DNA from: Nautilus pompilius
Taxonomy: Eukaryota; Mollusca; Cephalopoda; Nautilida; Nautilidae
Assembly: GCA_018389105.1 (NCBI GenBank)
Contig: JACATO010000320.1
Location: 930,001-994,000, forward strand
DNA length: 64,000 nt
Direction: 5' to 3'
Part shown: positions 977-62,189 of the stretch, in pieces
Layout of the letters: the number at the start of each line of letters is the position of its first letter
How positions within the stretch are numbered: the first letter of the stretch is position 1
The notes under the pieces: model-generated
The model's input: the letters and a program-made list of their open reading frames with translations, nothing else
Told to the model about the DNA's origin: nothing
The model's database searches: none
Translations under genes and position numbers: made by a program

Positions 977-3900
977 CTTCAAAGACAGAAAAAAAGAGAG
1001 AATCTTCAGCTTCCTGTGGCTCTATTCACCAGATGAGAGCTAAACAGCTGAACAGATCAACCAGAAATTTTACTACATCTTACACTTAATGTTGATGTCT
1101 GGAGAGATAAGGTCACACTTCCATAAAACCAAACCTTGTTGACTAGATGGAAGGTTTTCACCTTTTATGAGTACTTCGCAATGGAGATACACAATGAAGC
1201 AGTTTAGAAAGTGTTCAAAATAGGTTTGCTTATTTTTTTAAAAGATTTTCAGGAAAGAATACCAAGTGTACTGAATAAGCTTAAGAAAAAATTAGTTAAC
1301 TTTTTGTTTCTTTAGTAGTAATTATTTTGAGGAAAACAATTTCAATCTTATGACTTTTTACAAACTTTTCTAATAGTTGCCAAACAGTCATCCAGTTCTG
1401 TTTGCATTCCAAATACAGTATAATATAATTTTAAACATGCACATTGCAAAATCAGATTTTCTAAGTTTTTTTTTTTGCAAATCATTTTCCAAATTATACT
1501 CAATAAAGAATGGATTTAAGTCTATAGCAGTGTATTTTTAAATACTTTAACATTATACATTTCCCATATATGTATGTATGTATGTGCATGCATGTCTCTC
1601 ATGCAGTGATAATGAGCAAGATTTACAATAAGCAAGCATTTAGAACCCAAAATGTGGTGATGAACTGTAATGAAGAGGCAAACAATAAGTTTGTTAAAAA
1701 GAACTATTATAATAAAGACAGCAGACAACCTTGATCCACTATTTCATACTTTAGTTAGACCTCATCTGAAGCATGCAGTCCAAGCTGGTTTTTATGTTGC
1801 AAGATTAGAGTGCAAAGATGTTTTAGGTGAATAATTTAGAGAATCAATGAGTGTTTACAACAAATGAAGCCACTTCTATTCCAGCATGTCAGATTAGGAA
1901 GAGATTTAATTCAAATGAATCATGAATCTACAGATAAAACAGCCATCTTTGGCTCCCAGACTACAAGGAGCAATGAACTGAAACTTTATAAATGTAGTTG
2001 GCTGGATAATCATGATTAGTATTATTAGAAATAGACCAGTGAAAGCATGGAAGAGTATTCCTTATGAAATTAGGGCTTTATAAAGTTAAATTACTACTTG
2101 TGTCTCTGCAAAAGACAATATTATATTAGAGGATAGAGTGCAATATGCACAAATTAATTTGTTTGTACAATGTTAGGAGTGAAATAAAAAAGCAAGAACT
2201 TACTTCAAGTTTTTCATCATCAAAATCTGAATCATCAGCAGAGAACATAGTGTCCATACTATGAACTCTGTCTTTAGAGCACAAAGCAGCTGGCGTCTCT
2301 GTTGCCTGAATAAAAAACTCTTCATATGGATCTACTAATGTTCCATGAAGCATCCAGGCGCATAGCTGTTTGAAGAGTGGTCTATGGCAGATATGAAGAA
2401 TCCTAGTAAAAGATTTTTAAAGCCTATGTCATAAAGACATTCTATTCACAACTACCATGTGTTGCACAATCCATCCACAAATAACATTCATTCTTTCACA
2501 GATTATTATTAAATGTTCTGACATGGCTAATTCAAGAATATCCATGATTTGTTAATTTTGTTAGGCCCAGTCTCTCAAGTACTAATACTGACCATACCGG
2601 AGTTTGTTTAATTAACACCCCATGAACAAATCTTGGTTTTTCCTGCTGACATTTGATAACAAGAAGATAAACTTTACTTAGTCCAGTTTAAAAGAAAAAA
2701 AAAATAGAGTTTATCCAGTGTACTACTTAAAAAATATTGGTAATATATTACTGAAATATTTCAATGAGTCATACATGTTAGCTAGTGACAGGTTAACCAT
2801 TGATCATTTCAGTGATTAATTTTCCACAATATCCTCACAATTACTAAAAACGTAGTGATTTTTTTGTTATAAATTTAAAGTTAATGCAAGATTTAAAAAT
2901 AAGCCACCTTGCTCATCTATAGAAAACTTGTGCAAAAGTAGCTCTAGTGCAGTGGTTCTCAACCCTTTTTGCTCCATGCACCCTTTTCACCATATGCCAG
3001 TGTCATTCTCCCCTTCCCAAGATCGTCAAGGTGCATTCCAAGTAATATTTATTTTATGCTCTGATATTATTTATTTATGCATATAATATTGAAAATTATA
3101 TATTTTTTCTATATTAGTACATATACATTTGCTTGGATTACTTTTATAGTTGGGGTTACAAATTTAATGGCAATAAAATGTTGATGGATTATTTCATTTT
3201 AAAACTTGAATAATAGTAGTTTCTTATATATTACTCAACGGATAAACTGAAGCATATTTAAATAAACAGAAAGTTCAATAGAATGCCAAGGTATTATAAT
3301 TCATTTCATTCTTAAGAAGATTACAGTCAATGAGAAGCCTGCAATTGTTTTTTCTTTGCCAATTCTTGGATACGTGGAGGAGAGCTTGAAAGGGCACAAA
3401 ACAGATCATTTTCAACCTCCAATCTATTTCGTTGCTTTGTTTTCATTTGCAACAGAACTGAAAAGCCTGACTCACAGATATGTGTCAACACAAATGGAAG
3501 CAATGCATGGATAGCTCTTTGTGCCACTTTTGGGTAGGAATTGCACATTAAGGGCCACAATTCTATGATTGATTTCTCATTGAACATATCTCTTGCTCCT
3601 GAATTAGTCTTCAGCTCTATAAATTCATCCTGACAATCATCAGGAACTTTTTCAACTGACAATTTGAATGGATTTTGCACTAAATCCAACTCCTCAACAC
3701 GGAGTTCAAGAAAATATCGGCTGAATTCATTTTTCAGTGCTGTCAAATGCTTGAAAATTTCATTTTTTGCAAAATTCCGGAAGCACTTGGTCTTCACCAA
3801 CCAGCAAAAAGAACTGATGACAGTTTCTCAAACACTGCAACATTTCTGATCTTGGCCTTTATCTTCCAATTTTCCAACTTGCTCCAAGAAACGTTCAAGG

Positions 3901-14325: not shown

Positions 14326-17300
14326 GTGAGTCGTCCCGTCTAGTGGAAATGTCTTGCTTTTAAAGAAAATTGTTCCCCTCCCCTGTTTATCTTACTTTGC
14401 CGCTGCCTCGTGTGAAGTCGCCCTGAGGGCTGGAATTCTGATGGAGCGGTCAGACCCGCAGTTCGCGATGTGGGAAGCGAAGTCCTGCCGAGTCCTAAAA
14501 CACCTAAAGAAAAAATCATGGCGGACGGAGGACTGCAGCAGCCGCCACGTGCACTCCTATTTCCCCCAACCCTCCCCTCCCCATCGTTTCTGGCTTTCAC
14601 GAACAGGGGCCTACCCTTGATCGACTTTCGGGAGGGTTTAGTCCGCACTGCAGACGCTGTTCATCACCATCTATTATAAACGAACAAAACGTCCAGCCCC
14701 AAATATTAGGGGGATCGCTCTGTAGGACTACAGGTAAATTACATTTAATGCGCCCTGGATTTTGGATGGAAATTCGCTGTGTCCGTATCCTTGGAGCGAT
14801 CCCTTGTATAGTCGTTCTTTGCTCGCGATGTTGTTGTAAACTGGTGGGTATGTCTCTACATTCTGGAGGTGCTCGTACTGCGAGATTAAAACCGATGTAC
14901 ATACCCTCTGTCGCGTAGAAGGGGGAAGCTCTTTCGGTTTGAGTAGACTTAGTGTGTACTTGCATGAAAGTTCAGCTGAATGTACTAACCTATTCAGTGT
15001 ATTTGGTTTACTGGATTCACTGAAGTAATTCCCTCCTGCTTAAATGATTGACTTTAAGGGTGTAGACTTAAAAGTATTCTGAGCAGTTTGACCATTGCCC
15101 TCATGCAATTCCAGAGGGGGGGGAGAAGAGATTTTGTCTTGTCATTTTCATAGATAAATCATTGTAACCCGTGATATAGGAAGCCAAATTATGCAGGCTT
15201 TTGGCTAACTGATATTTTGTATGCATTTCATTCAGGCTTCAAGACCTATAATTTCCGTTTACAATGACAAGGGAGAGCCAACAGGAAAACTGATGGCCTT
15301 GCCCAGCATTTTCAAATCTCCCATCAGACCTGATATTGTCAGCTTCGTACATGATCAGATGATGAAGAACACTCGCCAACCATATGCTGTTTCTGAGTAT
15401 GCAGGTATAATTAAACAAAACATCTACCAAACAACTTCAGTGAAATGATTCAAAAGATTCTAATCATACATTAAATCTTTCATATTTTTTGTGCTTTTTG
15501 GGATTTTTTTTTTTATGGACAAGAAAAAAAAAATTCTTGCATATTTGTTTTGCTTGTGCTTTTTTAATACCTTAGAAGGCAAATTTTTAGTGCATCTGAT
15601 TAAAATAAAACAGTATTTAAACTAATATTTTGGGAAAAACAGCTCTGAAAGAATATTAAGAAACAAAACTGGAAACTATTATTTGTTATAGGCCTTGTAT
15701 GTAAGAAATTTAATACTGTTGTTTATTCAGCCTTATCTGATTGATACTATTTACAGTTTTAAATAACAGCTATAGTTGTGAGTCTTAAAAATAAAATATC
15801 TTGTATTATTGTTTTGTGTTTTTTGAGATACCTGAATTTTCCATAGATACAAAATTTATTTTATTGATTCCCATGCTGCTTTGAATGATGTAATTAAATC
15901 TGTTGCCTCTGTCTACTCCATAAAGAAATAAAAACAATCTAAATTTTAATTAATTAATAGGGAAGAAAATTTAAAAGATGCTTGCATGACTCAAATAGTA
16001 AGGAAAAATTTAATTTATAGTGCATAAAGTAAAAAAATGTAAAGTAAAATCTCACTTTCTGGAAGTGGTCAGTTCTTGTCTGTCCACTGCATTGTGGTAT
16101 GATTCAGAGCTGGCAATAGAAGTGGGTCTTCACTTGGTGACAAGAAGGGTTTTGCCTCTTGGATCACAGTAAGCAGGTCTTTCTCCCCTTATACCCTCTT
16201 AGTGTCCATTCTGAGATCTTTGTGGGTTTAGCCATATCAAGGAGAGATCTATTTTGAACAGTCTGTTAGGATCATCAGAGAAGGTGCTTTTGAGGAAGAG
16301 GTGCTGATACTGATTCATTTTGTTGAATCTTGAGAGTCCATGACCTTTGACAATCCTACATTCATTTTGTTGTCTGTACTCTAAAAATTATCGATGGATG
16401 GAATGGAATGAACGTCTATGGTTATGTCTATCACCATAAAAGCTGCCGCTGCCTCTAATGGTAGTGTTTGCCCAAGTGAAGTTTGATGTGAGCATATTGG
16501 TTGATATCTTTGTCATGGATAAGTTGACAAAACAATACTACTGGCTTGGTGTCATCAGCAACATTAATCTTCAGATTACGAGGCTGGGATAAAGCTGGCA
16601 TGTTGATCAGATGCAGATCTGAACTTCACTTGATCCCGTAGCAATCTTTCTTGTCACTGTTTACATCAAATGCATTTCATGACTTGTCTGAATGCTGAGA
16701 TCTGAAATATGCATGCTTGAAACTGCTATATAATAAGAGAAATGATTATCTGCCTGCATATCATAGCTGAAAATGTGTGCTATCTATAGTATAAAGCTGA
16801 AGCAGTCATGCTTGGCTGAAAGTGGCGAGTTTGTCCTGCAAAGGATTAAAAACAAACAAAATATTTCTCTGTACATTGAAAGTTTTATTCACATGTATTG
16901 TGAATCATTGAAAATATCAGTAGAATTTTAAAAAAAAAAACTTGATATTGAATGTAGTTTTCTTTAAATTTTTTGTTTAGGTCATCAGACATCAGCAGAG
17001 TCTTGGGGTACTGGGCGAGCTGTGGCTCGTATTCCTAGAGTACGAGGTGGTGGTACTCACAGGTCTGGTCAGGGTGCCTTTGGTAATATGTGCCGTGGTG
17101 GCCGCATGTTTGCTCCAACAAAGATTTGGAGACGTTGGCATCGCAAAATAAATGTTAATCAACGCAGATATGCTATTTGTTCCACAGTTGCTGCCAGTGG
17201 CATCTCAGCACTCGTCATGTCAAAAGGTATTTACTGTTCTTTTCTTTTTTACTTTGAATTGCATTTAATGAAAAACTTTATTCTCAATAGTGTTATTGTT

Positions 17301-20300
17301 AACTATTTTCTCTTTTATCACTAATTTTAAGAAGACATTTTATAATTTTGTCAGAATTCTAAGAATTAAGGGGTTAACTGACTCTAGAAAGTGTTGAAAA
17401 ATGACTCAGTTATTAACTTCTGGAAACTTACTACAATGTAATGTTTCATTTAAATGTTACAACTATTTAGTTTTGTGTATGGATAATTGTTGAAATGTAC
17501 TTCATAATCCTACAATCGATGATACAACGAAGAAAATAGATTTGTGTTATTGAATTTATTCTGATACCACTGACTTCTCTGAGCACAGCCAGTTGTGCAT
17601 CACATCTTGTTTCATGTAAGCACATGGTTTTTAGCTTCCTTGAGATACTGGGTGTTTTATTGCATTTATTCACTGAGCAGAGGGGTCTAAATGTCTTTAG
17701 CTGTTTTCATTTCTGTTGCTTCATGAAGGATAGGAAAATCTGAAATTTCGGATGTGGTGATGGTTTGAAGTTCACGCTGGCTATGAAATCTGTCTGTCTT
17801 GTATTCTTTCTTTGTATCTCCACATCCTTAGGTGTGGTTCTCTTAAAAAACACGACATGGAAGGCTCATATCCACTAAATTCCTGCGCAGTTTTGCATGC
17901 AGCTGACAGGTACTACTATCTGTGAATGGTTTGTTAGTCCTTAAAATTTGCTGATATACCTTATTTGTGAATTATTTAACCATTAGTTTGGTCATCCATT
18001 AATTTTATTTATTCTACCATGCATTTAACTTGTAAATCAAACCACCAACTAGAAAAAAACCCAAATATTTCTTGTGACTTAATAAAACGTTCTTTTATGT
18101 ACTAACTACAAAAATTTCTGCTAGAAATATGAGAAAATTTCTTCAGAATGAGATCAATTTCATCTTTATACTTAAAATTCCAATTTACACAGTTTTAGTG
18201 CATCTTTTTGTCACTATTTTTTTGTTTTTTGCACAGTCTAATTTATTTTTCAGTTACTGTTTTGAGCACATAGAGCGACAGTTTAATCTTAATATTCTTT
18301 ACATGTAGAGAATACACTTGTTGGTTTTCAGTGCAATAAATTTTTTGAAATTATCTTAGGCGAATAGTTCTTAAAATATTAGAAAATTATAATATTTACA
18401 AAATAATCATGGTTTTCATCAATTAAAAATTTTAAAAAAATTATTTGAAATGTTTGGCTCCATTTCCATAAATTGACTGACAGTGGAATGGTGAAGAAAA
18501 GATCCTAAAATTTTAATACCACTTATCCTGGGATTTTGTCACTAGGTGATTGTCTCAAATAACCAGATTGGAAAAATCTTCCTGGGTGACCATCTTTGAT
18601 TTTCTAATTCGGAATGTAGTTAGCAGACCCATACATCTGGAGTACTGTCTGAAAATCTGGCTTCAAAATTCCCGATTGTTCTTGAGTTAGAACCCCCTCC
18701 CCCCGTATGTGTAGGGGGGGGCAGTCCTGGAAAACTGCTTCTTACTCAGCCATTTTTAGAGGCCTACCATTCAAAATTTGTAAGAGCTGGCAGTTTATTA
18801 TTTTTTTTGCACTTAACCTTTTATAGGCAGAGATCAGGAAAACGCACTAAAATTCTAGTTTTTCTGTTATATCTTAGAGCACTCGTGCTCCAAAAATGGA
18901 AAAATCGCATCATGGTGAAAAATATTAAATATTGAAAAAAACTGTTACACCTTTTCTTCTACCTGTAACAACTTGTCCTTTGCAGATTTGGTATATGGAT
19001 ACATGGGGCTCACATAGCCACAGAGAGAACCTCTTGAGATAATACAAAGGTGGCACCCATAGTGGCAAAGTTGGCCAGCTCCTAAATATTATCCAACTCG
19101 ATGGACCATTATGCCTATGATGCCCTGGTGGAAGGGATTTGAGATATTTTTTCTGTGAAAGTGCACTAAATCCCTAATCCCTTCTTTCTCCATCAAATAT
19201 TAACCATTTTTGTATATTTTAAGCAATGGCCAAATATATGTATTTGGTACAAATTATACCATTTAAATCACTTTTTTTCACAGAACTCTGAGAAGTGGCA
19301 CACAGCTTAATCAAATGGTGTAGGTTCTAGATTTGCCATTAGATTTAGTGTGCAATAAATGGGTTCAAAGTTTCAGTGCCTCCAAAATGAGGTTGTCTAC
19401 CTTGCTCCATGTTCAAGAGGCAAAGTGAACATGTCAAACATAGAAGGGCTTTGGAATACTATCTCCTTAATTGAGCACATCCTAGCAAGTATAATGAAAA
19501 CTTGTCTTTTTTGTTTAGTGTTTGCTTCTATCTGAAAGCTACATTCAGTGTAAAACTTGTTGGTCTGTAGATATTGATTAATTTCAATTTTAGTACACTT
19601 TGAATTGTAAGTAAAAGTAGAAAATTCATTAATCGCTTAGTTATTTAACAACAAATTGAGAGAAGTTTATTTGCCAACACTAACATGTGACTCCATGGTA
19701 AATAGATAATGATATCAGCTTTCTGCACACTGGCCATTGAGTGCTGTAAATAGATGCTGATGTACTGAGTGGCTCATTGAACACGTGCCTTTAAAGAAGT
19801 GCAGTTGACATTTGGATTCTGCTAAGAAATAGTCATGGCATCAAATCAGTGCTCTTTAGGTCTGCTTCTACAGGTGGAATGTCATAGGACAATCTACACA
19901 AGGGCACCAAGGATCTATGAGGTATCAGCATTACCCCCTCTGGAAAGAATCCTGGTGGAGACAGTTTGAACAAAGGTGATACTTTGTGCAATGAGCATTA
20001 TGCATACTACTAGAACAAATTTTCAGATAGATAAAAAAGGTGTTGTAATCCATTTGACGACCATGCAAATAAAGTACCCGTTGAAATAGTTTAATTGACA
20101 TTGATCTTGCAGATCAGCTTTTGACTAAGGTTGGAAAGCTCATTAAGCCTGCCTGGAAACTGAAATGCCCAGTTCTACAGATGAAGAGAGTCAGGATTTC
20201 TTTACTCTTGTGCAGACAAATGCTGAAACAATTGATTCAAATCCTGTTACTTTTGGGTGCTCCATTAATGATTTTATGGTATTAAAAAAAAAAAAACGAA

Positions 20301-23300
20301 CAAAAATATCTTGTCAAAGCTAAAAATATACCAAAATGGATATTATTTGATAGGGAAGCAGAAATGGAAGTGAGTGGGGACTTAGTATACTTTGATGAAA
20401 ATGATATGCTTCATTAGGGGAAAATTATCCCTTATCCCTGCCTCCAGGCTAACACTGCTACAACGGCACCTCAATTTGGGTTATATTTAGGGGTCAGCCA
20501 AATTTGGCCACTAGTGGCACCACCTGTATATTATTTTGGGAAGTTATTCGAATGACTACATGAGTTCCATATACCTAGATATCAAATCCCCAAAGGACAA
20601 GTTGTTACAGGTAGAAATGTAGGTGTGACAGTTTTTTTCACTATTACATTATTTTTAACATTTTGAATGAATGAGTGTTACAAGGTATGACAGAAAAACT
20701 GCTTGTTTCTTCACAAATAAATTTTTCCTATGTTTAAAGATTTATTCTTTTCTGATAATTTTAATTAATGTGTTAATATTACTTCTTTCAGAATCTACTT
20801 GAATAAATTACCTTTATGTTATCAGAAAATTAAAGAAAAAAATTTTTGTTAATAGTAGTAACATTAACTTCTTTGCCTGCAAATATTTTGATAAAATTTA
20901 ATCATATGACATTGTGAACACTGGTTGGAATGGACAATGCATTGATGAGACTATGGTCCGTGTTATTGAAGTTTTCTGATATCAACAACCATCCTGAGCA
21001 TTGTCATTTATACCGTAATTAAAATATTTATCTTAAGCTCAATTAACTTTAACATTCAGTTTGGAACTAACATTTGAACTGCTTTGAAAAATGGCCATTT
21101 ACAGATTGAAGAATATATGTAGAAATATTGACTTGGTTGGTGCATGATTTAGTCAAGGTATTTGTTCTTGGTCAAAAAATTCTGGTTGGTTTGATTATTG
21201 ATTTCCTTATTTAGGGACATAAATATAGATGACCCAACAGTAAAACAGAAGGGAGTTGTCAGAAACTTTACCTTTAGCGAAGATTTTGTTTTTGATATAA
21301 TAAATATAACCGATTGACAGATTGGAATAGTAGAAATTATTCGAGTTTTTGAATTATTGATATGTGATGTACTTTTCTCTTTAACAAATGGATAATGACG
21401 CATAATGATAAACGGGTATTTTTGTTTCAGTATGATCTTGCTATGGTCAAATTATATAATTTCACTTTTCATACCTTGAAACTGATGATGCTATGATGAT
21501 AATTTATGGTCCGTGTTATTGAAGTTTTCTGATATCAACAACCATCCTGAGCATTGTCATTTATACCGTAATTAAAATATTTATCTTAAGCTCAATTAAC
21601 TTTAACATTCAGTTTGGAACTAACATCTGAACTGCTTTGAAAAATGGCCATTTACAGATTGAAGAATATATGTAGAAATATTGACTTGGTTGGTGCATGA
21701 CTTAGTCAAGGTATTTGTTCTTGGTCAAAAAATTTTGGTTGGTTTGATTGATTGATTGATTTCCTTATTTAGGGACATAAATATAGATGACCCAACAGTA
21801 AAACAGAAGGGAGTTGTCAGAAACTTTACCTTTAGCGAAGATTTTGTTTTTGATATAATAAATATAACTGATTGACAGATTGGAATAGTAGAAATTATTC
21901 GAGTTTTTGAATTATTGATATGTGAGGTACTTTTCTCTTTAACAAATGGATAATGATGCATAATGATAAACGGGTATTTTTGTTTCAGTATGATCTTGCT
22001 ATGGTCAAATTATATAATTTCACTTTTCATACTCTGAAACTGATGATGCTATGATGATAATTTATGGTCCGTGTTATTAACGTTAACTGCTGCTGTTAAT
22101 AACATGTCATACTGATTAAAATATTTTATTGGATATATTTACATAAGATTTAATATGAATATTTTTTGTATTTAAGGACACATAATTGACGAAATTGCTG
22201 AAATTCCTCTTGTTGTGTCTGATAAAGTACAAGAGTTTAAAAGGACAAAGGATGCTGTTGGTTTCCTTAGGCGATTGAAAGTCTGGAGTGACATTGAAAA
22301 GGTAAATTACAAGTGTTATGTCTACCAGTTGGGTCTATAGTAGATTTTATATTCAAACATTAGGCATGTCACTTGTTATAAATCAGATATCTTGTTAAAT
22401 TTATTGAATATCAACTGTAATGCGAGTGGAAATCATGTTGCCCATGATAGAAGTTTTTTAGTTTTAAAAAAGTGTGCTTGTGTGTATATTATTCTATGTG
22501 CAGGCATGTTGGGCTGATGCTGTTTTAGTCCTATTGTATATACAGCAGTTAGCTCCAATACATTTTGTTTTGTTGAAAATTACAGACTTTACCAAAGGAA
22601 GGACACTAAGCTGAGTTTCAAAAATATGTATGTTAAGAAATCAGTCAAATTAATCAATTCAAGATAAGAAACTTAGTTTTCAAATAAATGCCCATATTGA
22701 GTTTGTTTTCAGGTATCCTATTTTGAATCTCTGCAGCTTTTTTTGGTTTACTTTTCTGCACACTTAGATTTCTGTCCAGTGTATGGAATTTTAACCTCAA
22801 TTAGTTAAGTGGGTTTTTTCTCTAGTATATCTAAATGTAATTTTAAAATTACATGTTGATATGGAAAATAGATTGTCAAAAACTATTTTCAAATATCAGT
22901 TTGGTTGAATTAGTTGTACTGTTGGAATAAAACAAGTTGACAGTAATCACCATTTCCGCAAATGGTGATACTTCTCTGAATAATTTTTCTCTTTCTTGAA
23001 ACCTAAAATGTTTGTTGCCATGTAAAGAGATCAGTTATCTAAAATAAATTTTTTGAATGAACAAGCATTAAAAAAACTAACTACTCCATCTGTATTTATG
23101 CTACTTGTAGCAGTAAAGAATCAAATGCTGCAACCAATGGTTGAACAAAATTTTATTAAGTTTTAACCCAAAATCTTTTTTTAATTTTTTTTTTTTAAGG
23201 TATACAAATCTAAGCGCTTCCGAGCAGGCAGAGGAAAAATGAGAAACAGGAGGCGCATCATGCGCAAGGGTCCAGCGATTATCTACAATCAAGATAATGG

Positions 23301-24634
23301 AATTGTCAAGGCTTTTCGCAACATCCCTGGCAAGTTTCTGAAGCTTCTCATTTTAAAAACTATTGCAGTGATAGATTAGTCCAGTTGTCTCATGATGGGG
23401 TTCTACAACTATAGATTTACTTATTTATTTTATTAAAGGAAACTGCTGTTTTGTAGCTATATGCAAATTATTACCTGGAGGCTTGTTTTCATCATTAATT
23501 ACTGTTGAATTGTAATTTTTTACAACTTGCTGAAGAAAGCGATAGATAATGGGCATGTTCTGATAGCAAATTAGAATTAAGGCAGATCAGTTGTGAGTGC
23601 AATGACAAAATTACACCAATTTCTTCACTGAGAATGAAAATTGTTTTGTTGCTGTTCTTTTTCTTGTCATATTATTACAAGAAAGGTAGTTATGGCTTTA
23701 TATAAGACTCTAGAAGAAAGAACCTTATCTTTTAAACTGATTTACACATTATTTGCAGTTTGTATTTTTAGCCATAGATAACCTAATGTTGGCTTTTGCA
23801 GAATAAACACTTAGTTATTTTAAAAACATTTTGCAATAGTTTATTCAAACTCAAGTCTGATATTTTAAATTATTCAAATGTCTTATTAAGGAAAACAATT
23901 CATGACTTTTTGTAAAATGTTTGTCACTCCTTCCTTGACCAAAATTCATACTCATTACAAATATATTAAACAACTAAACTAGTTAAGACAGGTTTAAAGG
24001 ATGCTATTTAAGTATAGTTGAGTTGTGTAAAAGACTAGCCTTTTCTCTTTATTATTGTAAGAAATATTAAATAATCTATTAAAACACTGACATGGGTACA
24101 CACACATTTTCTAATAAAGTAATCAGCTTTGGCAATAGAATAAACTACTGAATTACTTTTCAGTCAAACCCAAATCTCTCAGTAGTGATGCTTTTTTTTT
24201 TTTTTAGAGACTTCCACTTTTCATATTAAAGCTTCATGCATAGAATGGAATGCTAGAAACTTAGAATTTGCAGCATTTAATTAGTGGTTTTCAGTTTGTT
24301 TAAATTATATATTTACCTCAGGTCTGCCTCTTTAAATGGCAAAAAAAATTACAAACATTAATTGTCCACTACATGCTGAAAAATGGTTCAGTTGATGTAA
24401 AGGGCTGAAATTTGTATCAGGATGTAACAGATTTCTCGAAAAACTAATGAAAATACACAATTGAAATCATCTGAAACTGTCAAATTTCTTAAAAACAGAA
24501 AAATAATTTTTGACAATCAAATAAAAATAACAAAGGTTTAAATTTTTGTCAAGGCATAACAATCTTGAGGAAATGTCCTAACAATATTTTCTAGTAGTTG
24601 AAAGTGATCGTATCCTAGAGCAATTTCAGTTAAG

Positions 24635-24670
<36 letters not shown>

Positions 24671-27600
24671 CTAATGTGAATTTGCATCAGAATGTTTCCT
24701 ATTTCCAGCAGTTGATATCAATAAAATACTTATGCCAGCAGCACAGTAAGAAGACAGAAGGGCAGTTTAGCAATGTTTGTTTTTTAATGAAGTTCCAAAT
24801 AATTCTCTCGTAACTGTTCTTTTGGATAGTTATGTCCATATTTATCTGTAGCAGCAACGAAGTTCTATCATCCTTTCTGAACACTTTACTAAGTAATACC
24901 GATTATATTTGTCACCACTTTGCATAACAACTGTCATTCAAAATAATTTAACAACAAGCTATTTTTTGTGCGTGCGCACTCATCCTCGGAATGGAGACGT
25001 CTTAATGAGAAGAAATTACTTTTGCTGCTGCTGCTGCTTTATGTTTGCAATCTATAATTGTAATACTAATATCCTTTGCTGAGATATCTGTGCTTTGATT
25101 TTTGCTTATACCATCTATTTTTCTCTTGATAAGCATCCTTTTGTTGTTTTGTAAGTTCATTTTCTTTCATTCATTGCTTGCTTCTATTTTCACTCAAGTT
25201 CAATCTTTATTCTTAGGATTGCTTCTCACCTTGCTTGTCTTTGGCATCTTTTTTCTCTTAATATCTAAATATTTTAAACCTGAAAAATATACAAGTTTAT
25301 GCCTTGACATTGGCACTTATGAACAGATCTGACAGTTTTGAATATAAAGAGCAGGAAGAAAATATTTTTTAAATAAAAGGTGATGCATATTTTTTACTTT
25401 CACAAGATAAAGATAGATAGTATTTAACTGTTGTTGGAAGTCATCAATACTTAAAAGATGAATTATGTAACAGCATATCATTTTCTGCAAATGTGGAAAT
25501 TGCATAACTTCTAATGCATCTAAACTGGGTTTCATATAATTTTTTAAGATCCAGAAGAGCTTCTGTTTTAAAATTATATATTTGAAAATCAAAAAAATAG
25601 CACATAGCCTGAGTTGATGCCATGATGAATTTTCAACATGACTTTATAAAAGTGACCTTCTTGGTGAGCATTTAAAATGGAAGGTTCTTTGCAAAAATGT
25701 TCGTATTCCAATTGAATATTTAACTTACAAGTGTAATATAAATTTCAATGAACACATTTTGCTTTATAGTTTTAAAAAAAAAATTGTATTTTAAGGTATA
25801 GCAACAGTGAATGTGAAACATCTCAACCTTTTGAAGTTGGCTCCTGGTGGACATGTAGGAAGATTCTGCATTTGGACTGAAACCGCTTTTGAACAACTGA
25901 ACAAGCTCTATGGGACGTGGAAGAAAGCTTCCTCACTTAAGAAAGGCTACCAGTAAGTTTTGGTTAAACAAAATTTGACTTGTTTGTAAACTAAAATAAA
26001 ACCTGGGATTGTCTAGGTATAACAAAATGGGGGAGTTGCTCTCAAACTGTGCAAGCACTGAGCCACTGCAGTTTTTTGCTGTTCATATTGACAAACGATG
26101 CATAATGAATTGTGCTGCTGCTGTGTTGACCTAAATGGAGATTGGATAATTTGTGCAAAGCAGAATGCAAACATTTTTAGTGGAAATGCTAACACACACC
26201 TGCTTGGCTCACTTTGTTTCTGGTATTTTTTGTAGCCTCAGGCTTGTTCTGATATGTAAGTATGATGTAGTCAGTACTCCTTAATTAAAAGTCTGATGCA
26301 GAATATAAAATGAAATATTTAAACTTGCCCTGCAAAAAAGTTATTTTTCTGCACACATCCTTCTAGAAAATATAAGCTTTGTAGCTTTTAATAGCTCTGA
26401 TGGTGTCTTTCTCAACACTTTTTATTATTGTTGCTTAATGATATATTAGTTTTGTTGTTTTTGTTTTTATCCAGTCTGTAAGGTTTGCAGTGGTGGTACT
26501 TTTCATATTTACAATTTTGCATTCACATAGAAAAGAACTAACAAACATTGGATAGATTACCTTCTTCCCCCTCCCCATACCACTGAAAAATCTATCTAGT
26601 GGATTTGGTGCATTTTTGAGAATCTTCTCTATTTGTGTCATAAGCAGTCTGTTATCTATATTTGAGATGATTCCTAGGCATATACAATTTATAATTTCTA
26701 GTAGATTCTACTATTAGAGTGAATGAATGAGTTTCCACATTTGCTGTTCAGAAAATTTTTTGGTTGACTGCAGAAAATGCATGTCTGAATAAATTTTACG
26801 AACCAAAAAATCATAAAATGACTTAGCATAAAGTTTAGTCATTTAAATGAAAAGGGAAAATTAAAGGGAAAATGTAATAGTATGAAAAGAAAAAATTTAG
26901 AGTAAAATTTCTTTAATTTTCTGTGTCATTAATTTTGACACTAAGTTTGCCATCCTCACTTTGAAAACTCAGCAGACTACTGAATTATAGTTATGTTTAA
27001 CTGTTACAGGTGCTTTTATCATTGGTACTGAAATTTTATTATAGAAGAATTCACATTGCATATTAATTGTTGCATAACTTTTCAAAAACACTAGCTAATG
27101 CAAACTGCTGTGAGAGAGATTTATCAGGGAGGCCAGTGAACAAAAAATACACTGACTAAACTTATGGAATTTGTCTGATCAATCGCTAAACTATGGCAGA
27201 GTTTTGTTGTTGGATTTTTGTTTCATCCCTGGACAACTGCAGTGGATGGTGTCTACGAAAATGTGGAGATAAATTTGATGTTTTGCTTCCAGCACATTTA
27301 ACTACATAACGACAATGGCAAATTACAACATTCATTTTAATGATGTGATCAGATTGTTTAACTAACATCTTTTATAATCTTTGCATACAGAAATGTAATT
27401 AGATGGTTATAAGTACATATTCTACTAATTTTGTGGCGAGTACATCTGTAAAATTAATTTTTTTGAATAAGATTTTAAGAAAAAAATTAAATTGTGTGTT
27501 TAATATCATTAAATTCATGACAAGATTATAGTGGACCCTCAATCTAACGGACTATATGGAGGGAAAGGTGGTCTGTTAGATCCAAAAGTCTGTTAGACAA

Positions 27601-30600
27601 AAAAAAAAACAGTACACAATTAAAATTTAAAAAAAAAAAAAAAAAACTTTTATTTTAGGCATTTTTTCAAGGATTGTTTCAGCAGTTATAGTATAGTGCT
27701 CATATCAGAGAAACTTCCAAGACTGGAACCAGCTCGAACATGGAAGAAGTTGCTCCTGGATTTACTATGCTGCTTTCAATAGACTCTAGGGCTGGTTTAA
27801 AGAAGCACTTGATCTCCGGAACTGCTCATGAATTAATCTCTCTGAGTTCTCAAATGTTCATAATAAGACTGCATTGCAACATAAGAGGTTTGTTCAATGA
27901 AATTTATCACAGAATCAAGGCTGTCCCTGCACTCTGAATGCTTTTAAAGACTTTTCTCTGGTCTCATCTTCCTCTTCATTCTCCAAGTCGTCTTCTAGAG
28001 TAGCAATAGATACATCAATGGCTATTTCTTCCAAAAGATTCTCATAATCAGCATCTCTATCAGCAAATTTTCAAAATTCTCAATTGTTGCAGCTGTTTAC
28101 CCAGCCAACTGTATGGTTGTGTGGTCGTCCTTGGAGTCAAAACGTTCAAAAATCTATAATAACAACATGGCCAAATGAGCTGATTCCAGCAATTTACATG
28201 GGTTTGCACTTTGATGTCCTTCCAAGTACTATTCTAATTGAAGATAGATGACTTAATGTTGTAGCTCTTGATTTTCTGAAAAATTCTCTTGAATCTTCAA
28301 CTTGATCCTCTATTCCTTCCAACACTACCATAACTTCATCCAAAAACTTTATTCTATAAAGCTTGCATGCCAGTATGTTTCCTGTGGCAGGCTGAAACAG
28401 TTGATTTTTTTTTTTTTTTTCCCATCTGTACTGCATATTGTTGTTAGGTTAAGATGAGAAGGAGCATTATCAAGAATTAATATGGCCTTCATGTCTTCAG
28501 GGATTATCTTCAAGACTTCGGTCTGAGATTTGCTAACTTTTGGATCAAAGTGATGATGAAATCTGTCTCTGGTGATGTCTTGAGTAAACCAGACATTTAG
28601 AGAGTTGTAGTAAAGCACAGGGAGCCTAGTCATACAGTCCAGAATTCTGCATTAGCAGAGAGAAGTGCAGAAATTCTCCTTGCTGATCTTTGTCAGATGT
28701 TGAATACTCAACTTATAGCCTGAGTATTTACTGGTAAAGACTTCAAAAAATAACCCAGTTTCATCTGCATTATACACACGGCTCAAAGCACAATCCTCAT
28801 TCTTGTGATATCACTAAGTTTTTATTTGAATGGTTCAACACTTTCAACATCAGCACTTAATGATTTTCTTGTCACAAATGTTATGCCTCCTATGAAAATT
28901 CCATAATCAACCACTGTTTTCAGTAAAATTTGGAATCTTTAAATCCTTTGAAAGTCTTTCTGCAGCAGACTATTTCTACATCACGAAGACCAACACTGCT
29001 AGAGTTCTGTTGGACATACCATTTGTAAATAGCCTCTTCCAATTTTGCATCACTAGCTTGCTTTGTTTTTTCTAGATTACACACTACCTTTTTAGTTCAC
29101 ATCAAATTAAATTTCTTAAGCTTATCTTTGCTTCACTTTGTCAGACATTGTTTTGCAACTCCGAACTTCATGACGATAACAATTGATATACCAGCCTCTA
29201 TTTTCTCAACAACCTTTAATTTTTCCGCAATAGGACTTTGCATTTCCTTTTTACTTCACTTGTATTAGGCCATTATTAACAGTTAAAGTAGCTGAAAGGG
29301 CACAAAAATTAATAATTTTAAGGAAGAATTAACAGGAGCTCTGCATCGCTTAGCTGCCAACTACCAATGGCTGATGGAGCTAGAAAAAAACATGGCGATG
29401 CCATCCAAGTCCATTGGATGCAATATCTATTAAACTGAAGGTTTTTGTGTATTTGTGTTTACTAACTTTAGTCATGAAGACTTATGGGTCTCCCCAGTGG
29501 TTATTGTAAACTTTTTAGTTTTACATTAAAAGTATTGGCTAAATATGAAACCAGTTCAACACAAATAAAATTAGTGCATCTAAGTAAAGTGTGAACTGAC
29601 ATTGAATACAGAAGGTTAAATAAAAACTTATTTACAATATACTGCTGGTCTTTATACCATTGTATTACCTAAACACAAAAGTATACCTTAAATCTTTGGT
29701 TGTTGATTGTCCTTGTATTTATATGGCGAATTTTAAATGAAAAAAATATGTACTGATTTACTTTGTGTGCTCTCTTCATTTTTTTTACTTGTCATTTTTC
29801 TGTTGAGTGCAGCTTACCTATGTCCAAGATGATGTTCTCTGATTTGACTCGAATCCTGAAGAGTGGAGAAGTTCAGGGTGCTTTAAGACCACCAGAGTAT
29901 GTATGATACATTATGTCACCAAAGATTAAAGTTTTTTGTGAAGAGATGTGGAGTGAACATTTAGATTTCATTTTTTAAATTAAATTTGTTGTTGATAGGT
30001 GTCAATAAGAGTTGCTTTTCTAAAACTATATTTATTGTAAGTTTCATTTTCTTTAAAGATATGTATGAGATTTGATTTATGGATAATCACAATCTCTCTT
30101 AAAAAATTGTTCTAAGAACATTTCAACCATTAGTACTACTTAAATATTTTTCTTTATTAGGGAGTGCTTCAGAAAAAAAAACTACTACACATTAATGGAC
30201 AGAATATCTTTAGTGAGCAAAAATGTAAATCATAATTGTCAAGTGTGGAATTTGATGTGGAGGGTTGAATCACTGATTGGGAGGTTTAGTCTACATAAAT
30301 TTCACTGTGCTGTCTCTTGATGTCATCCATGAAGGTTTTCATGTTCTCCAATAATTATCCCCCTATTTATTTATTTTCAGCAAACGTGTAATGCGATACA
30401 AGCAGAGGAGGAATCCTCTGAAAAACAAATTTCTAATGTCAAAGTTGAATCCTTATCACGATGTTGTTAAGCAGAATGCCATCTTGTTGCAGAAGAAAAA
30501 TATTGAAAAGAAACAAACTGGGGTAAGGCAGTAACTAGTACTAGAAACCCTATTTTAAAGGATTTTTTAACAGTTCTAATCAAAGTTTTTAAAAAATTTC

Positions 30601-55000: not shown

Positions 55001-58000
55001 AAGAAACATAAGAATTTAAAATTTGGACAGGGGTTCCCCTAGCCTAGACATTAAAAAAAATTTTAATTTAAATAAAAACAACAAACTTAATTATGGATAC
55101 AACACAATCAGTTGGAGAATTAAAGCATTTCATAAACATCAAGTGTAAAATAAAATAGGCCAACCTTGCAAAATACATCTGTTTTCTAAGTACATTTGGC
55201 CGTCCAAGGAAATTCTGTTTCCCAAGACGTCTGGAAAGTGCATTCGTAGCATTTTCTCGCAGCCTTAGTTGCCAAATAAACCATTTTGAGTAATCACATG
55301 AACATTCATGAGCTTGGTTTAAAATGATAAATATTGATTAGTTGTCTTATTTGTATAATCGGTTTCCATTGGCCAAGAAGAAAGTGAAGCACGATTTCCA
55401 GTATGAATCATGCTTACTCAATTGGTTTTGCCTTAGAGAGCAAACGATTGGCTGACGATTACCGAGAAATGTCGATTGTACGAAAAAGTTAATTATAGTT
55501 ACGCAGAACAGTAAACTTCCAGAAAAAAATCAGTGTACATGCCTAAAATTGGTAGAAATTACCAATTTTTAAAACCCAATTGGTAGATCAGGTCGAAGGT
55601 CCAAATTTGGGAGACTCCTGCCCATATCAGGAGAGTTGGCAATTCTGCTATTGTCTCTTCAAAGTTGTAGGAATTCTGGAATCAAGCTACAGGATTGGAT
55701 CATGATTCCCTTGATCAAATATAGACTGGAGGATATTTTGAAGGATAGATATGTGTCAGAATTTAATTGCCCATGAGTTAATGCAAGATTTGTTTGACCT
55801 CTCTAACCTGATGCCCTAACTCTGTAACAGTGGTTTTAAAAACCTCACCAACCTTTTTTCCATTAACCATGTGTAAGGGGCCTGCCAATATATATGTACG
55901 TTGGTAAAGTGGTAGTCTAAGTATATGCAGGTGCCATTGTACGGTGTGACTTGATCATAAAAACCTTTAAGGTGAGTCTTGGTGGTCACTATAAGGTTGG
56001 CAGACATTTTGTGTGCAGTGAGTGACAGGATGTCCAGAACATTGGTGTGCAATGCTTATACCTTCTCTAAACAGTCAGATTATCTGGTGCACATCCTCTA
56101 TGGTGGTTATACCTTCTCTAAACAGTCAGATTATCTGGTGCACATCCTCTATGGTGGTTATACCTTCTCTAAACAGTCAGATTATCTGGAGCACATCCTC
56201 TATGGTGGTTATACCTTCTCTAAACAGTCAGATTATCTGGTGCACATCCTCTATGGTGATTATACCTTCTCTAAACAGTCAAATTATCTGGAGCACATCC
56301 TCTATGGTGGTTATACCTTCTCTAAACAGTCAGATTATCTGATGCACATCCTCTATGGTGGTTATACCTTCTCTAAACAGTCAGATTATCTGGTGCATAT
56401 CACCTATGGAAAACTAAAGTTTTATACCATATGAAATGAATGGCTTTGCATTGGCCATTTACGTAATCCTAGATAAATGGGGAAATGTTCCTTGGTAGCC
56501 CTGTTTATACTGCTGATAATGGTTGGGCATATAAATTATTGACAAATTCATCTTTTGTGTGGTCAGTTTATTGTGCAACTTGTGTTTGTGCAGCATGTGT
56601 ATTTTTATTCACCTTGAAAAATAAAGGTTCTTCTGTTTCTACTTTGTATCCAAACTGTTCTTGTTTTTTAGGTTAATGAACAAACCACTTTTTAATCTTG
56701 TGGTGGGGGGGGCTCTTCAGCAAGTTTGTTTCATGCTCCAACACCCCTCCTGTTAGTTAGGACACTGAAACACTAACATGTATGGGGGGAAAAGGAAGCA
56801 GTGTGAGCCTAGATCAGGCTGACCTTGTTTATTTCTTTGGCAACGTATAGCTGAGTGAAAGATTTTTTAACCCCCCCCCCCCTGCTACCGTGTTAGAAAC
56901 TACGGCAACTGACAATCTTCTGTGTTTGCAGATGCGTAAACATAGCGCAAGCCAAATTTAATTGCAAAACATATTGTTATTTAAATCAGCATCTGGGTTG
57001 TAATGTGATTTGAATTTGACAGCTGATCGTCTGTGCAGAAATGATAAACAGCTTGGCCAGATCAACTCTCAGCCGCTGACAAGTTGGTAAACACCAGCAG
57101 ATTAATGATTTTGTGTGTTTAATTTCTCTGCTGGTTTTTCGAATATGGTAATGCTGTTGAATTTTTTTTCAGCTTGAGAGTTTGTTTGATCTAAGGGGCT
57201 GATGAATATTAATGAGGGCCAACAAACCCCTGCTCTGAATATGCTGTGTCATTTGAAGGCTTTCTTTGTTAGCCAGCAGTGATCAATAGGTGTATCAGCT
57301 GGAGATGGTGGCAGACAGCTGTGTGTACACAGCCATGGACAATACTAATTACTTAATGTAAATTTGATGGGATTAAATTTCTGGGGCAACACTAACCACA
57401 GGTATTGTGCGGATCAGTTCACAAGCACTGTTGTCTTTCCATAATTGGCTGTCATCTGGCTAAGTGATTTATGGAAATAACACATGATTTGTATTTAACT
57501 ATCCACCATCAACTCCCCATCTTAGTTGCCTGGTTTCAGCACACACTTAATTTTTTTTTAAATGTTTGCTTTTGTTAGTTTAGTTCCAACATTTGGCAAA
57601 CATTCCTGTTTGTTGCTTTGGAAAAAGTTGATAAGAAAAGTTTCATTTTTGACCTATCAACTAAATCCTAGTCAAGTGATGTGGTCTCTGTGTGTTAAAT
57701 GTTAATTATTTTTATGCTCTCTCATATCTGTTTATGTATATATCTATGCATATGTGTACATATTGTATATTCTCTCACTATTTTAGAGTTTCATCAAATT
57801 CTTACCAATTTTTTTTTTTTTTTAGCTGAATTTTTACTATGGATAAAATTTGCAATCTTTTGTCTAATCTGAATCCCACCAAAGTTTCAGAATCTGATGT
57901 ATATCCACAGTACTTAACCAAAATGCTTATTTTAAAAACTTAGCATTTAATTTTTATTTTATCACTACTGTATCCAGTTTCTCCATGGAATCACTCCTTT

Positions 58001-61000: not shown

Positions 61001-61783
61001 TGAGCAGAGAGAAGACTGTTGTGGCTTTGCCACGTTTTAGTTTGAAATCTGCTGCTGTTGCCTTATGTCTGAATTTTGATCAGTGATCATTGGATTAACA
61101 AATGATTGAAAAATATGAAAAAAAGAGGGGATGATACTATGGTGTTTAATGAAGATAGGAGTCAGAAAAGTGAAAGGTGACCATGTGTTTGGAGGATGCA
61201 GAAAGATGTAGAGAAATCTGGTTACAAAAATCTATTTAGAAATTTAAAATTCTTGGTGATGGGATTAGGTTGAGGCGAAAATTTTTTGCTGCTCTTTTTT
61301 TTTCAAATTTGTCACTCATCCCTGTTCACAACAAAATTGCTAATACATTGAGGATGTTTAATTCAGAGGCCCTGTGAATATCAAAGCAATGTTTAAATGA
61401 CTTTATAATTCTGAAAAAAAAAAGATTTTTTACATTGTAACACACAATGAGGATAGTAATTTGTTTAGCAATGAGGTGATGCAATAATTTTGGCTACAAC
61501 TGGAACAAACCATAAAAATGCTGTTAAGCACAAATTATTTGGAGTTAAAGGGATTCTTGTAAGAACTGGTTGAGATTTTATCTTCAGACATTTTGTTCAC
61601 ATTTATGTTTATGTTATAGTGGCTAGTAAAGCAGTATACAATCTTTTATGTCTTCAGTTTGGTCAGCGAAAAACCATTTGACGGGGCTCAGGGGAACTTG
61701 AGACGTTTGCTTGAAAAAAACTTAAAACGTTACCAGGAGCTGACAGAGAAGTCACCACGGGATCTTCCTCCAGAGCAGCAAAG
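37002..61783 (+). CDS. SMG5: SMG5 nonsense-mediated decay factor, first eight coding exons, partial
   Basis: SMG5 (EST1B) binds phosphorylated UPF1 through a 14-3-3-like domain, with SMG7, and promotes UPF1 dephosphorylation and mRNA decay. Exons: 37002-37069, 40172-40270, 44027-44150, 48832-48988, 49565-49672, 50469-50558, 51671-51749, 61658-61783 (851 nt), all phase-compatible. The encoded N-terminus covers the 14-3-3-like/TPR region: HRLDEILQQKRAYRDVF, YGRKAEEVLWRKVFYDIIQL, GACHRCLVYLGDIARYQQDF, AERFYYQAFGILP, GNLRRLLEKNLKRYQEL. These follow vertebrate SMG5 block by block and fit SMG5 better than SMG6 or SMG7. The middle linker and C-terminal PIN domain lie beyond 64000. ATG 37002 is the first in frame after a stop at 36987-36989. 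Confidence 0.94.
37269..37295 (+). repeat. 27-base T homopolymer
   Basis: T run followed by GGG and a further T run, in SMG5 intron 1, just inside the CpG-rich region. Confidence 0.9.
39320..39502. mobile_element. Possible 183-bp MITE
   Basis: CAGTTGAAACGGC at the left end is repeated inverted at the right end (GCCATTTCAACTG), 12 of 13 matching. No clear target duplication was seen and no family is assigned. Confidence 0.4.
40172..40270 (+). CDS. SMG5: SMG5 coding exon 2
   Basis: 99 nt encoding AIHRLDEILQQKRAYRDVF to GLRSK; acceptor TTTTAG, donor GTGAGT. Matches SMG5 AVHRLDLILCNKTAYQEVF. Confidence 0.93.
40271..44026 (+). other. SMG5 intron 2
   Basis: AT-rich, with a decayed mariner transposase around 42092-42430 and no other recognised gene. 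Confidence 0.75.
42092..42430 (-). pseudogene. Mariner transposase fragment, decayed
   Basis: The minus-strand frame includes SECTIKQPREHSNSC and LLPHGIAVNAAYYCYILLNY, matching the mariner ...LPPG.TVNA.YY..LL segment. A shifted frame contains QDNTPLTCG and LLTPYSPDVAKS, the HDNA..H and PPYSPDLAPSD motifs. Related debris may extend to about 42900. Confidence 0.65.
44027..44150 (+). CDS. SMG5: SMG5 coding exon 3
   Basis: 124 nt encoding LKTYCERLMFYNPLE then YGRKAEEVLWRKVFYDIIQL, the most conserved SMG5 14-3-3-like block. Acceptor GCCAG, donor GTGAGT. Confidence 0.96.
44500..45290 (+). pseudogene. Tc1-like transposase, decayed
   Basis: Plus-strand fragments LFSEESRFQHLMSGDC (from about 44780) and YPDINLIECL followed by EHLDCQLRA (about 45070-45130). 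These match the Tc1 FSDESRF..L..GD and SPDLNPIEHLWD.LDRRVR motifs. Stops and frameshifts throughout. Lies in SMG5 intron 3. Confidence 0.75.
45477..45512. repeat. Compound CT/TA/CA microsatellite
   Basis: Consecutive TC, TA and CA dinucleotide runs between two transposon remnants. Confidence 0.9.
45700..46560 (-). pseudogene. Tc1-like transposase, decayed, minus strand
   Basis: Minus-strand translation shows MFFTDEYKFELFSNKQQQFV near 46190-46130 and REFIFQYDNDLNYSAN near 45970-45920. These match Tc1 SDESKFE.F and FQQDNDPKH...N. An N-terminal helix-turn-helix remnant lies to the right (46560-46300). In-frame stops are present. Confidence 0.72.
46749..47095. mobile_element. Possible short mariner-derived element
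   Basis: The left end GGTGTGTTCCAAAACGATTT resembles the mariner terminal repeat seen at 62190. A loosely similar inverted sequence occurs near 47070-47095. No coding content. Confidence 0.25.
47395..48130 (-). pseudogene. Tc1-like transposase, decayed, minus strand
   Basis: Minus-strand reading gives FTDESGFSLQNESLHVFIW (about 47730-47670), GGHTDLHVFQGDTL, and TGATGDNLILMDCNAHPRKK (about 47490-47430). These match the Tc1 FTDESRF.LQN, G.TDLHV and MDDNARPHRA motifs. A stop separates the first two blocks. Confidence 0.78.
48832..48988 (+). CDS. SMG5: SMG5 coding exon 4
   Basis: 157 nt encoding HIRPHGSLETAFRTHLAAAT and YYYHLLLHLQTEFGLHLEG, matching SMG5 HIHSRSTLE.AYRTHLVAGIG. Donor GTAAGT. Confidence 0.95.
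48989..49564 (+). other. SMG5 intron 4
   Basis: AT-rich 576-base intron with nothing recognisable. Confidence 0.7.
49565..49672 (+). CDS. SMG5: SMG5 coding exon 5
   Basis: 108 nt. Encodes a lysine-rich stretch, then AVQEWALGACHRCLVYLGDI, matching SMG5 DWAQMACHRCLVYLGDL. Acceptor TCTAG, donor GTAAGC. Confidence 0.95.
49673..50468 (+). other. SMG5 intron 5
   Basis: AT-rich. No gene or repeat recognised. Confidence 0.7.
50469..50558 (+). CDS. SMG5: SMG5 coding exon 6
   Basis: 90 nt encoding ARYQQDFDHCLHSSTAERFY then YQAFGILPEV; SMG5 has SRYQNEL...LAERFYYQALSVAPQ. Confidence 0.95.
50559..51670 (+). other. SMG5 intron 6
   Basis: AT-rich with A and T homopolymers; no gene or transposon recognised. 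Confidence 0.65.
51671..51749 (+). CDS. SMG5: SMG5 coding exon 7
   Basis: 79 nt encoding GIPHNQLGSLVASRYFHCEA then AYHYIR, matching SMG5 GMPFNQLGTLAGSKYYNVEAMYCYLR. Donor GTAAGT. Confidence 0.95.
51750..54431 (+). other. SMG5 intron 7, left part
   Basis: Start of a 9.9-kb intron. Less AT-rich patches such as 52700-53060 look like old repeats but were not classified. No gene seen. Confidence 0.5.
54432..55647. mobile_element. Inverted-repeat element with 6-bp target duplication
   Basis: The left end CATACTTGCCAAC and the complement of the right end, CAGAATTGCCAAC, match at 10 of 13. Both sides are flanked by CTATTG (54426-54431 and 55648-55653). Subterminal sequences also pair loosely (GGGGAGG / GGGCAGGAG). 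A 9-bp hairpin AAATTGGTA/TACCAATTT lies near 55547-55569. No transposase, so non-autonomous. Family not assigned. Confidence 0.6.
56058..56410 (+). repeat. 51-bp minisatellite, seven copies
   Basis: Copies begin at 56058, 56109, 56160, 56211, 56262, 56313 and 56364; the last degenerates after about 40 bases. The unit starts ATACCTTCTCTAAACAGTCA. Copies differ at only a few bases. Because 51 is a multiple of three, two frames stay open through the array (17-residue periods YTFSKQSDYLVHILYGG and IPSLNSQIIWCTSSMVV). This is a by-product and not evidence of coding. Confidence 0.95.
56940..57340. promoter_or_regulatory. Possible intronic enhancer
   Basis: A non-repetitive block of balanced composition stands out from its flanks. 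It holds clustered homeodomain-type sites: TTTAATTG near 56957, TGACAGCTGATC near 57018, ATTAATGATT near 57100 and ATTAATGAG near 57206. It has no coding frame. The call rests on texture only. Confidence 0.2.
57341..61657 (+). other. SMG5 intron 7, right part
   Basis: AT-rich to exon 8. The block 59690-60350 is less AT-rich, with a fragmented plus-strand frame that might be a decayed transposon; no motif is clear enough to assign it. A G/C homopolymer lies near 60854. Confidence 0.45.
61658..61783 (+). CDS. SMG5: SMG5 coding exon 8
   Basis: 126 nt encoding PFDGAQGNLRRLLEKNLKRY and ending PPEQQR, matching SMG5 SFEGAYGNLKRLYDKAAKMY. Acceptor TTCAG, donor GTGGGA. The reading frame continues beyond the donor to 61994, but that part has no SMG5 similarity. 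Confidence 0.93.
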
Positions 61784-62189
61784 GTGGGACTTCTTTATGA
61801 TGCTGACCTTTCTGTGCATTTTCATTGTGTGTATGTGTGTGAGAGAGACAGAGGAGGGGGGAGATAAGAGATCTATTCATTGTGGTTGGGGTGTTGTGAA
61901 GATGCTAGGTACAGATGTGTTGGTAATGAGTGAGAGCATGAAAATTGTTAGAGATTTTTACACACACACACATGCACGCACACTTGATATTTAGGGTGTT
62001 TGGTAAGTTATCAAACTTTCCAACTAATTGACTCATTTGTATTTATTTTTCATTAAGCTTTGCCTCCTGAAAGGGGAGATAACTGACAGATTATCTTTCT
62101 TTGAGAAATTCAAAATAGATAAAAGCAAAAGGATTTTTTCCTAAATATATAAAGAAGAATGACATTTTTTGTGTAGTTATGTATAAATA

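What the first reader, a model, noticed from the sequence alone, without database searches (positions are those of the whole stretch)
20953..22078. Tandem duplication with breakpoints on the snoRNA guide, creating a hybrid snoRNA
The duplicated unit begins and ends at the 15-base guide core ATGGTCCGTGTTATT, the only sequence shared by all three junctions. This fits unequal crossing-over between two neighbouring U18 paralogues. It leaves copy A, a hybrid (5' of C, 3' of A) and copy C. About 98.5% unit identity makes it recent.
Basis: partly seen in the sequence, partly recalled or inferred. Interest (0 to 1): 0.78.

Follow-up and report, generated by a model that had tools for sequence, protein, structure and literature searches.

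The report
Tandem duplication built a hybrid snoRNA
Inside an intron of a mollusc ribosomal-protein gene, a 553-base piece was duplicated with its breakpoints on the rRNA-guiding word shared by two neighbouring small nucleolar RNA elements, which appears to have made a third, well-formed guide RNA from half of each; it is a neat, fairly young case of an otherwise familiar kind of duplication.

Summary
Two tandem units (20952-21504, 21505-22062) differ at 8 sites plus one 5-nt indel. Unit start, junction and right end carry the same 16-nt word TATGGTCCGTGTTATT, the intron's longest exact direct repeat once one unit is taken out. The host is an RPL4 intron (17227-22176); RPL4 is the usual U18 (SNORD18) host in vertebrates. 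The genome (727.6 Mb, probably Nautilus pompilius) showed RPL4 at one locus.

The middle copy H joins C's 5' half to A's 3' half. H is the best SNORD18 match found in the genome (39.8 bits, under Rfam's cut-off of 41) and has a 9-bp terminal stem. A has 8 bp. C has no stem, a degenerate D', and a hairpin over its guide, so the 'paralogue' C may be a decayed or half snoRNA, and H a repaired U18 rather than a mere mixture.

'Unequal crossing-over' is not proven: 16 bp is short, and a template switch fits as well or better. At a published Nautilus rate the units date to about 2.6 My (1.1-5.1). Assembly error was not excluded by reads, no outgroup DNA was available, and expression is untested.

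The parts
17227..22176 (+). Host intron of RPL4 (uL4), 4950 nt, between the exons that end ...VMSK(G) and start (G)HIIDEI...
   Evidence: Pfam Ribosomal_L4 and uL4 alignments of the flanking exons; GT at 17227 and AG at 22176
20933..21005 (+). Copy A, U18-type box C/D snoRNA: 8-bp stem arms 20933-20940 / 20998-21005, C box TTGATGA 20942-20948 (first base off consensus), D' TTGA 20966-20969, D box CTGA 20994-20997
   Evidence: SNORD18 32.3 bits, below cut-off 41; stem; box scan
20952..21504 (+). Tandem unit 1, 553 nt
21505..22062 (+). Tandem unit 2, 558 nt
20952..20967 (+). 16-nt guide word, left breakpoint
21505..21520 (+). 16-nt guide word at the unit junction
22063..22078 (+). 16-nt guide word, right breakpoint
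21483..21559 (+). Copy H, the hybrid (5' half of C, 3' half of A): 9-bp stem arms 21483-21491 / 21551-21559, C box ATGATGA 21493-21499, D' TTGA 21519-21522, D box CTGA 21547-21550
   Evidence: SNORD18 39.8 bits, E 0.00013 in 15 kb, best of the genome search; stem
22041..22115 (+). Copy C, U18-like element: C box ATGATGA 22051-22057, D' position TTAA 22077-22080, D-like CTGA 22112-22115, no terminal stem; D end 61 nt before the 3' splice site
   Evidence: SNORD18 27.6 bits, below an off-locus match of 31.3; no stem
22070..22106 (+). Hairpin in C (arms 22070-22081 / 22095-22106, 11 of 12 paired) that covers half of the guide

Best explanation
The RPL4 intron first held two U18-type elements about 550 nt apart: A, a complete snoRNA, and C, with a good 5' half and guide but no matching 3' stem arm. 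A short-homology exchange between misaligned copies, in my view more likely a template switch or other microhomology-mediated exchange than a classical crossing-over, joined the guide word of C to that of A and duplicated the 553 nt between them. Shown by the sequence: the duplication, the breakpoints on the guide word, the 5'-C/3'-A make-up of H and its closed stem. Inferred: the two-element ancestor, the kind of exchange, and the product: H is predicted to fold, bind C/D proteins and guide the U18 2'-O-methylation of 28S rRNA, so the intron has two stem-closed U18 guides (A, H) where it had one.
For: The 16-nt word is at all three borders and is the intron's longest exact direct repeat with one unit out. 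The flanks of A and C share at most 12-14 nt in local alignment beyond it. Stem energies: A -18.2, H -10.9, C -3.8 kcal/mol; random intron pairs do as well in 3, 43 and 1179 of 2000. C's 5' arm pairs 8 of 8 with A's 3' arm (37 of 63,992 window 8-mers do) but at most 3 in a row with its own 3' flank. A C-box/D-box scan with a stem of 6 or more finds only A and H on both strands of the window. H is the top SNORD18 match found in the genome. RPL4 in chicken carries three U18 copies, 28S-A-1263 (PMC2653536, table passage).
Against: All three copies are below Rfam's cut-off. In the genome search an off-locus match without the guide scores 31.3, almost as high as A (32.3) and above C, and the same search rang at E up to 10 in 10 of 14 prokaryote control genomes, none over the cut-off. 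Whole-RNA folds of A and H are no better than shuffles (z -1.07 and -0.87). The box scan let the first C-box base be T, to admit A, after A had been seen; 1 of 20 base shuffles of the RPL4 region gave a candidate. No expression, read or outgroup data.
Confidence: 0.64

Rival explanations
1. Classical unequal crossing-over between two full, functional U18 paralogues A and C. C would be a stem-less snoRNA that relies on its place near the branch point.
For: C's D-like box ends 61 nt before the 3' splice site, near the place favoured in vertebrates, about 50 nt before the branch point (PMC8162545, passage). The core-excluded 3' halves of A and C keep some likeness (9 of 5000 shuffles as good; 78 of 8952 window pieces as good).
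Against: 16 bp is short for homologous crossing-over (recalled). C has TTAA at D', a guide mostly paired in its own hairpin (mean unpaired 0.15 against 0.40 in A and 0.45 in H), and no stem.
Confidence: 0.2
2. Assembly artefact: two haplotypes of one unit placed head to tail.
For: Unit divergence of 1.4% could be allelic; RPL4 was found at one locus, with no second haplotig to compare.
Against: The junction falls exactly on the guide word shared by A and C, which a random mis-join would not do, and a 16-nt word is short for a repeat-driven mis-join (inference). The published Nautilus assembly used 112.5x PacBio reads (PMC8257504, passage), if that is this genome.
Confidence: 0.09
3. The three-copy array is old, and the likeness of the units was kept by gene conversion.
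For: Unit identity alone cannot tell age from conversion; the left 122 nt of the unit carry no difference.
Against: The 8 differences are spread over the rest of the unit, mostly transitions, plus one microsatellite step, as simple divergence would give; no separate test for patches was run.
Confidence: 0.07

Closest known systems
U18 / SNORD18 snoRNAs in RPL4 introns of vertebrates
   Same: Same host gene; guide word in the register of the Rfam consensus; in chicken three copies in RPL4 (PMC2653536, table passage)
   Different: Chicken copies sit one per intron (2, 5, 6); here all three are in one intron, two of them near-identical over half their length, one without a stem
Intragenic cis-duplication of snoRNAs
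   Same: Copies arise by duplication inside the host gene; chicken study also speaks of recombination of guiding function (PMC2653536, abstract and passages)
   Different: Here the breakpoints can be read and lie inside the snoRNAs, on the guide, so the new copy is a hybrid; in the passages seen whole snoRNAs are copied or guides are regrouped
Introns with two snoRNAs that leave a snoRNA-ended long RNA (sno-lncRNA)
   Same: A and H, both stem-closed, lie in one intron (PMC11028025, passages)
   Different: No RNA evidence here; the pair would be two U18 copies about 550 nt apart

Membership tests
SNORD18 (U18) box C/D snoRNA | U18 guide word before D' | tested here: met
   UGGUCCGUGUU aligned to the Rfam consensus in all three; D' TTGA in A and H, TTAA in C
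SNORD18 (U18) box C/D snoRNA | C and D boxes closed by a terminal stem | tested here: met
   Met by A (8 bp) and H (9 bp); not met by C. A's C box is TTGATGA, first base off consensus
SNORD18 (U18) box C/D snoRNA | Rfam score over the curated cut-off (41 bits) | tested here: not met
   39.8, 32.3, 27.6 bits. I therefore call the copies U18-like; the cut-off is an operational line, not a part of the RNA
SNORD18 (U18) box C/D snoRNA | Lies in an intron of RPL4 | tested here: met
SNORD18 (U18) box C/D snoRNA | Methylates its 28S rRNA site; is expressed | not testable with these tools
   No RNA data and no 28S sequence of the host were looked at
Tandem duplication by unequal crossing-over | Borders lie on homologous positions of two repeats | tested here: met
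   16-nt word at all three borders
Tandem duplication by unequal crossing-over | Enough homology for a crossing-over rather than a microhomology event | tested here: inconclusive
   16 bp exact and only weak likeness around it; the lower limit is recalled, not tested
sno-lncRNA intron | A stable RNA that runs from one snoRNA to the other | not testable with these tools
   No RNA data

The most novel reading that the evidence does not exclude
The duplication repaired a snoRNA: C was an orphan U18 5' half whose stem arm fits A's 3' arm in 8 of 8 positions but not its own 3' flank, and the exchange on the guide word gave it a working 3' half. Because animal introns mostly carry one snoRNA, the new A-H pair would also make an intron-derived sno-lncRNA of about 627 nt (20933-21559) as a by-product, or need an internal cut.
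Probability: 0.17. Interest if true: 0.6.

Novelty: new variant of a known kind. Interest (0 to 1): 0.42.

Why it matters
snoRNA families are known to grow by duplication inside host genes, but breakpoints are seldom readable (my judgement). Here both can be read, and they fall on the guide, the longest word that the two elements share. That suggests a general route to test: the conserved guide serves as the recombination handle, so copies can swap stems and boxes while the targeting word stays intact. It also gives a polymorphism to look for (one, two or three units) in living populations.

Tried and rejected
Rejected: the unit as a common mobile element. A DNA search of the own genome with the array found itself and one 143-nt piece (window 21322-21464) at 90% on contig C2556. 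A search from that side found 5 places: itself, the two window copies, a 78% stub on C325, and a match of another part on C895. The piece has a fold-back pattern in the C325 stub and does not reach the breakpoints. The tool warns that common words are skipped, so copy number is a lower bound.

Rejected as U18: the two off-locus SNORD18 matches (31.3 and 27.5 bits), which lack GGTCCGTGTT. Only 60 of 138,054 first-look candidates were scored, so further U18 loci are not excluded.

Led nowhere: an exact 30-mer in viral contigs gave 0 hits. A gapped U18 pattern gave 4 stretches in viral contigs and 7 in prokaryote genomes; none was examined further.

Considered: an outer stem for C. The 149-nt fold is no better than shuffles (z -0.56, 56 of 200 as good) though its minimum-energy form does hold an outer pairing. 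Also considered: a 14-mer TTAACTGCTGCTGT that follows C's core at 22083 and also follows the repeat piece on C2556; 9 of 20,000 random piece pairs of the window share a 14-mer. It hints that C's 3' flank may not be snoRNA at all. A genome count of that word was asked for seven times and never answered.

Literature: nine answered searches on snoRNAs, of which I saw capped lists with titles and abstract starts, showed no paper on a hybrid snoRNA made by recombination on its guide. The library lacks most subscription journals. Papers were seen as passages only (PMC2653536; PMC5122169; PMC6962438; PMC10234308; PMC8162545; PMC5282483, a reference-list passage; PMC11028025; PMC10324135; PMC8257504).

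Full report
Observation. The window holds the word TATGGTCCGTGTTATT at 20952, 21505 and 22063 and nowhere else exactly. Between the three lie two tandem units of 553 and 558 nt that differ at 8 sites (7 transitions) and by one 5-nt TTGA-type step over 574 aligned columns. The left end, the unit junction and the right end all carry the word. Outside it the flanks of A and C share no stretch longer than 12-14 nt in local alignment. When one unit is taken out in a script, the word is the only repeated 16-mer in the intron (words of one or two letters left out), and the next longest repeat is a TTGA microsatellite.

Where it is. Exons of ribosomal protein L4 flank the array: Pfam Ribosomal_L4 at 16968-17324, gap-free alignment of the two flanking exons, joined, to uL4 of solved ribosomes, and seven exon matches from 15236 to 30513. 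The splice sites put the array in an intron of 4950 nt, 17227-22176. The closest named RPL4 proteins are those of Argonauta hians and Octopus vulgaris at 80 and 79% (best 120 of 7655 listed). The assembly has 727,640,739 bases. Nautilus pompilius was published at 730.58 Mb (PMC8257504, passage), so this is probably Nautilus; that is inference. RPL4 was found at one locus only, five exon matches, all in this gene.

What the copies are. Rfam gives SNORD18 for all three, full length: H 39.8, A 32.3, C 27.6 bits, all below the cut-off of 41. At the gathering threshold the window has no Rfam match at all. In the whole genome the same model finds H first, A second, an off-locus match third (31.3), C fourth and another off-locus match fifth (27.5) (60 of 138,054 candidates scored; the control rang in 10 of 14 prokaryote genomes at this loose E-value, none over the cut-off). 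The two off-locus matches lack the guide, so score alone does not lift A and C above chance; the exact guide plus the RPL4 intron does. The guide sits before D' (TTGA in A and H) in the register of the Rfam consensus. I did not test it against the host's 28S rRNA. In chicken U18 is listed for 28S-A-1263 with three copies in RPL4 introns 2, 5 and 6 (PMC2653536, table passage).

The hybrid is the best-matching copy. Terminal stems: A 8 bp, -18.2 kcal/mol; H 9 bp, -10.9; C none, -3.8; pairs of random intron pieces did as well in 3, 43 and 1179 of 2000. C's 5' arm GATGATGC pairs with A's 3' arm in 8 of 8 positions (two of them G-U), which 37 of 63,992 8-mers of the window do, and with its own 3' flank in a run of at most 3. 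C also folds half its guide into a hairpin paired at 11 of 12 positions (z -2.41; one of 8 such inverted repeats in 64 kb), so the guide is unpaired with mean probability 0.15 against 0.40 in A and 0.45 in H. Against this: whole-RNA folds of A and H are no better than shuffles (z -1.07 and -0.87), and C's D-like box ends 61 nt from the 3' splice site, close to the place favoured in vertebrates (PMC8162545, passage), so a stem-less, splicing-coupled C cannot be excluded.

How it arose. The simplest ancestor is A, spacer, C, with one exchange on the guide word giving A, H, C. The core-excluded 3' halves of A and C keep some likeness (9 of 5000 shuffles as good; 78 of 8952 window pieces as good). 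For the 5' halves the two controls disagree: 312 of 5000 shuffles, 15 of 8954 window pieces. So C is either an old paralogue or a half copy. The 16 bp of identity is short for homologous crossing-over (recalled), so I put a template switch or another short-homology exchange first. The 8 differences in 569 sites give 2.56 My (1.1-5.1 from the Poisson range of the count) at 2.77e-9 per site per year, the published synonymous rate for N. pompilius. This is too old if the two units were already different alleles, and too young if conversion has acted.

How it would work. For intronic snoRNAs the literature seen gives: debranching and trimming up to the protein-bound ends; one snoRNA per intron is the predominant rule in animals, and two can leave a snoRNA-ended long RNA (PMC11028025, passages). 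More stable terminal stems mark expressed C/D snoRNAs in human (PMC10234308, passages). By these rules A and H should both be made, C probably not, and an A-to-H RNA of about 627 nt is a possible by-product. None of this was measured.

Verdict. It is a new variant of snoRNA cis-duplication, of moderate interest.

Noticed in passing
22083-22096 and own genome C2556:30690-30703: The 14-mer TTAACTGCTGCTGT follows C's guide word and also directly follows the low-copy repeat piece on C2556, as if the C 5' half sat inside an older sequence; 9 of 20,000 random piece pairs share a 14-mer.
   Followed up: partly
21322-21464 and 21880-22022: A piece of about 145 nt inside each unit has an 88-90% copy on C2556 and a 78% stub with fold-back pattern on C325: a low-copy, MITE-like repeat remnant.
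   Followed up: partly
15236-30513: The RPL4 gene is uneven in conservation: the exon next to the array is 93% identical to Argonauta, the last two exons found only 53-61%.
   Followed up: no
3327-3827 (-) and 28349-28651 (-): Transposase remnants: hAT dimerisation region (21.3 bits, just under its cut-off of 21.4) and DDE_1 endonuclease (31.6 bits, over its cut-off).
   Followed up: no
2126-2416 (-) and 61620-61994 (+): Exons of other genes: gamma-tubulin complex N-terminal domain and Est1 DNA/RNA-binding domain.
   Followed up: no
55976-56434 (+): Open frame of head-to-tail repeats GGYTFSKQSDYLVHILY; weak zinc-finger profile matches with no single stretch passing, and no cysteines in the repeat.
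   Followed up: no
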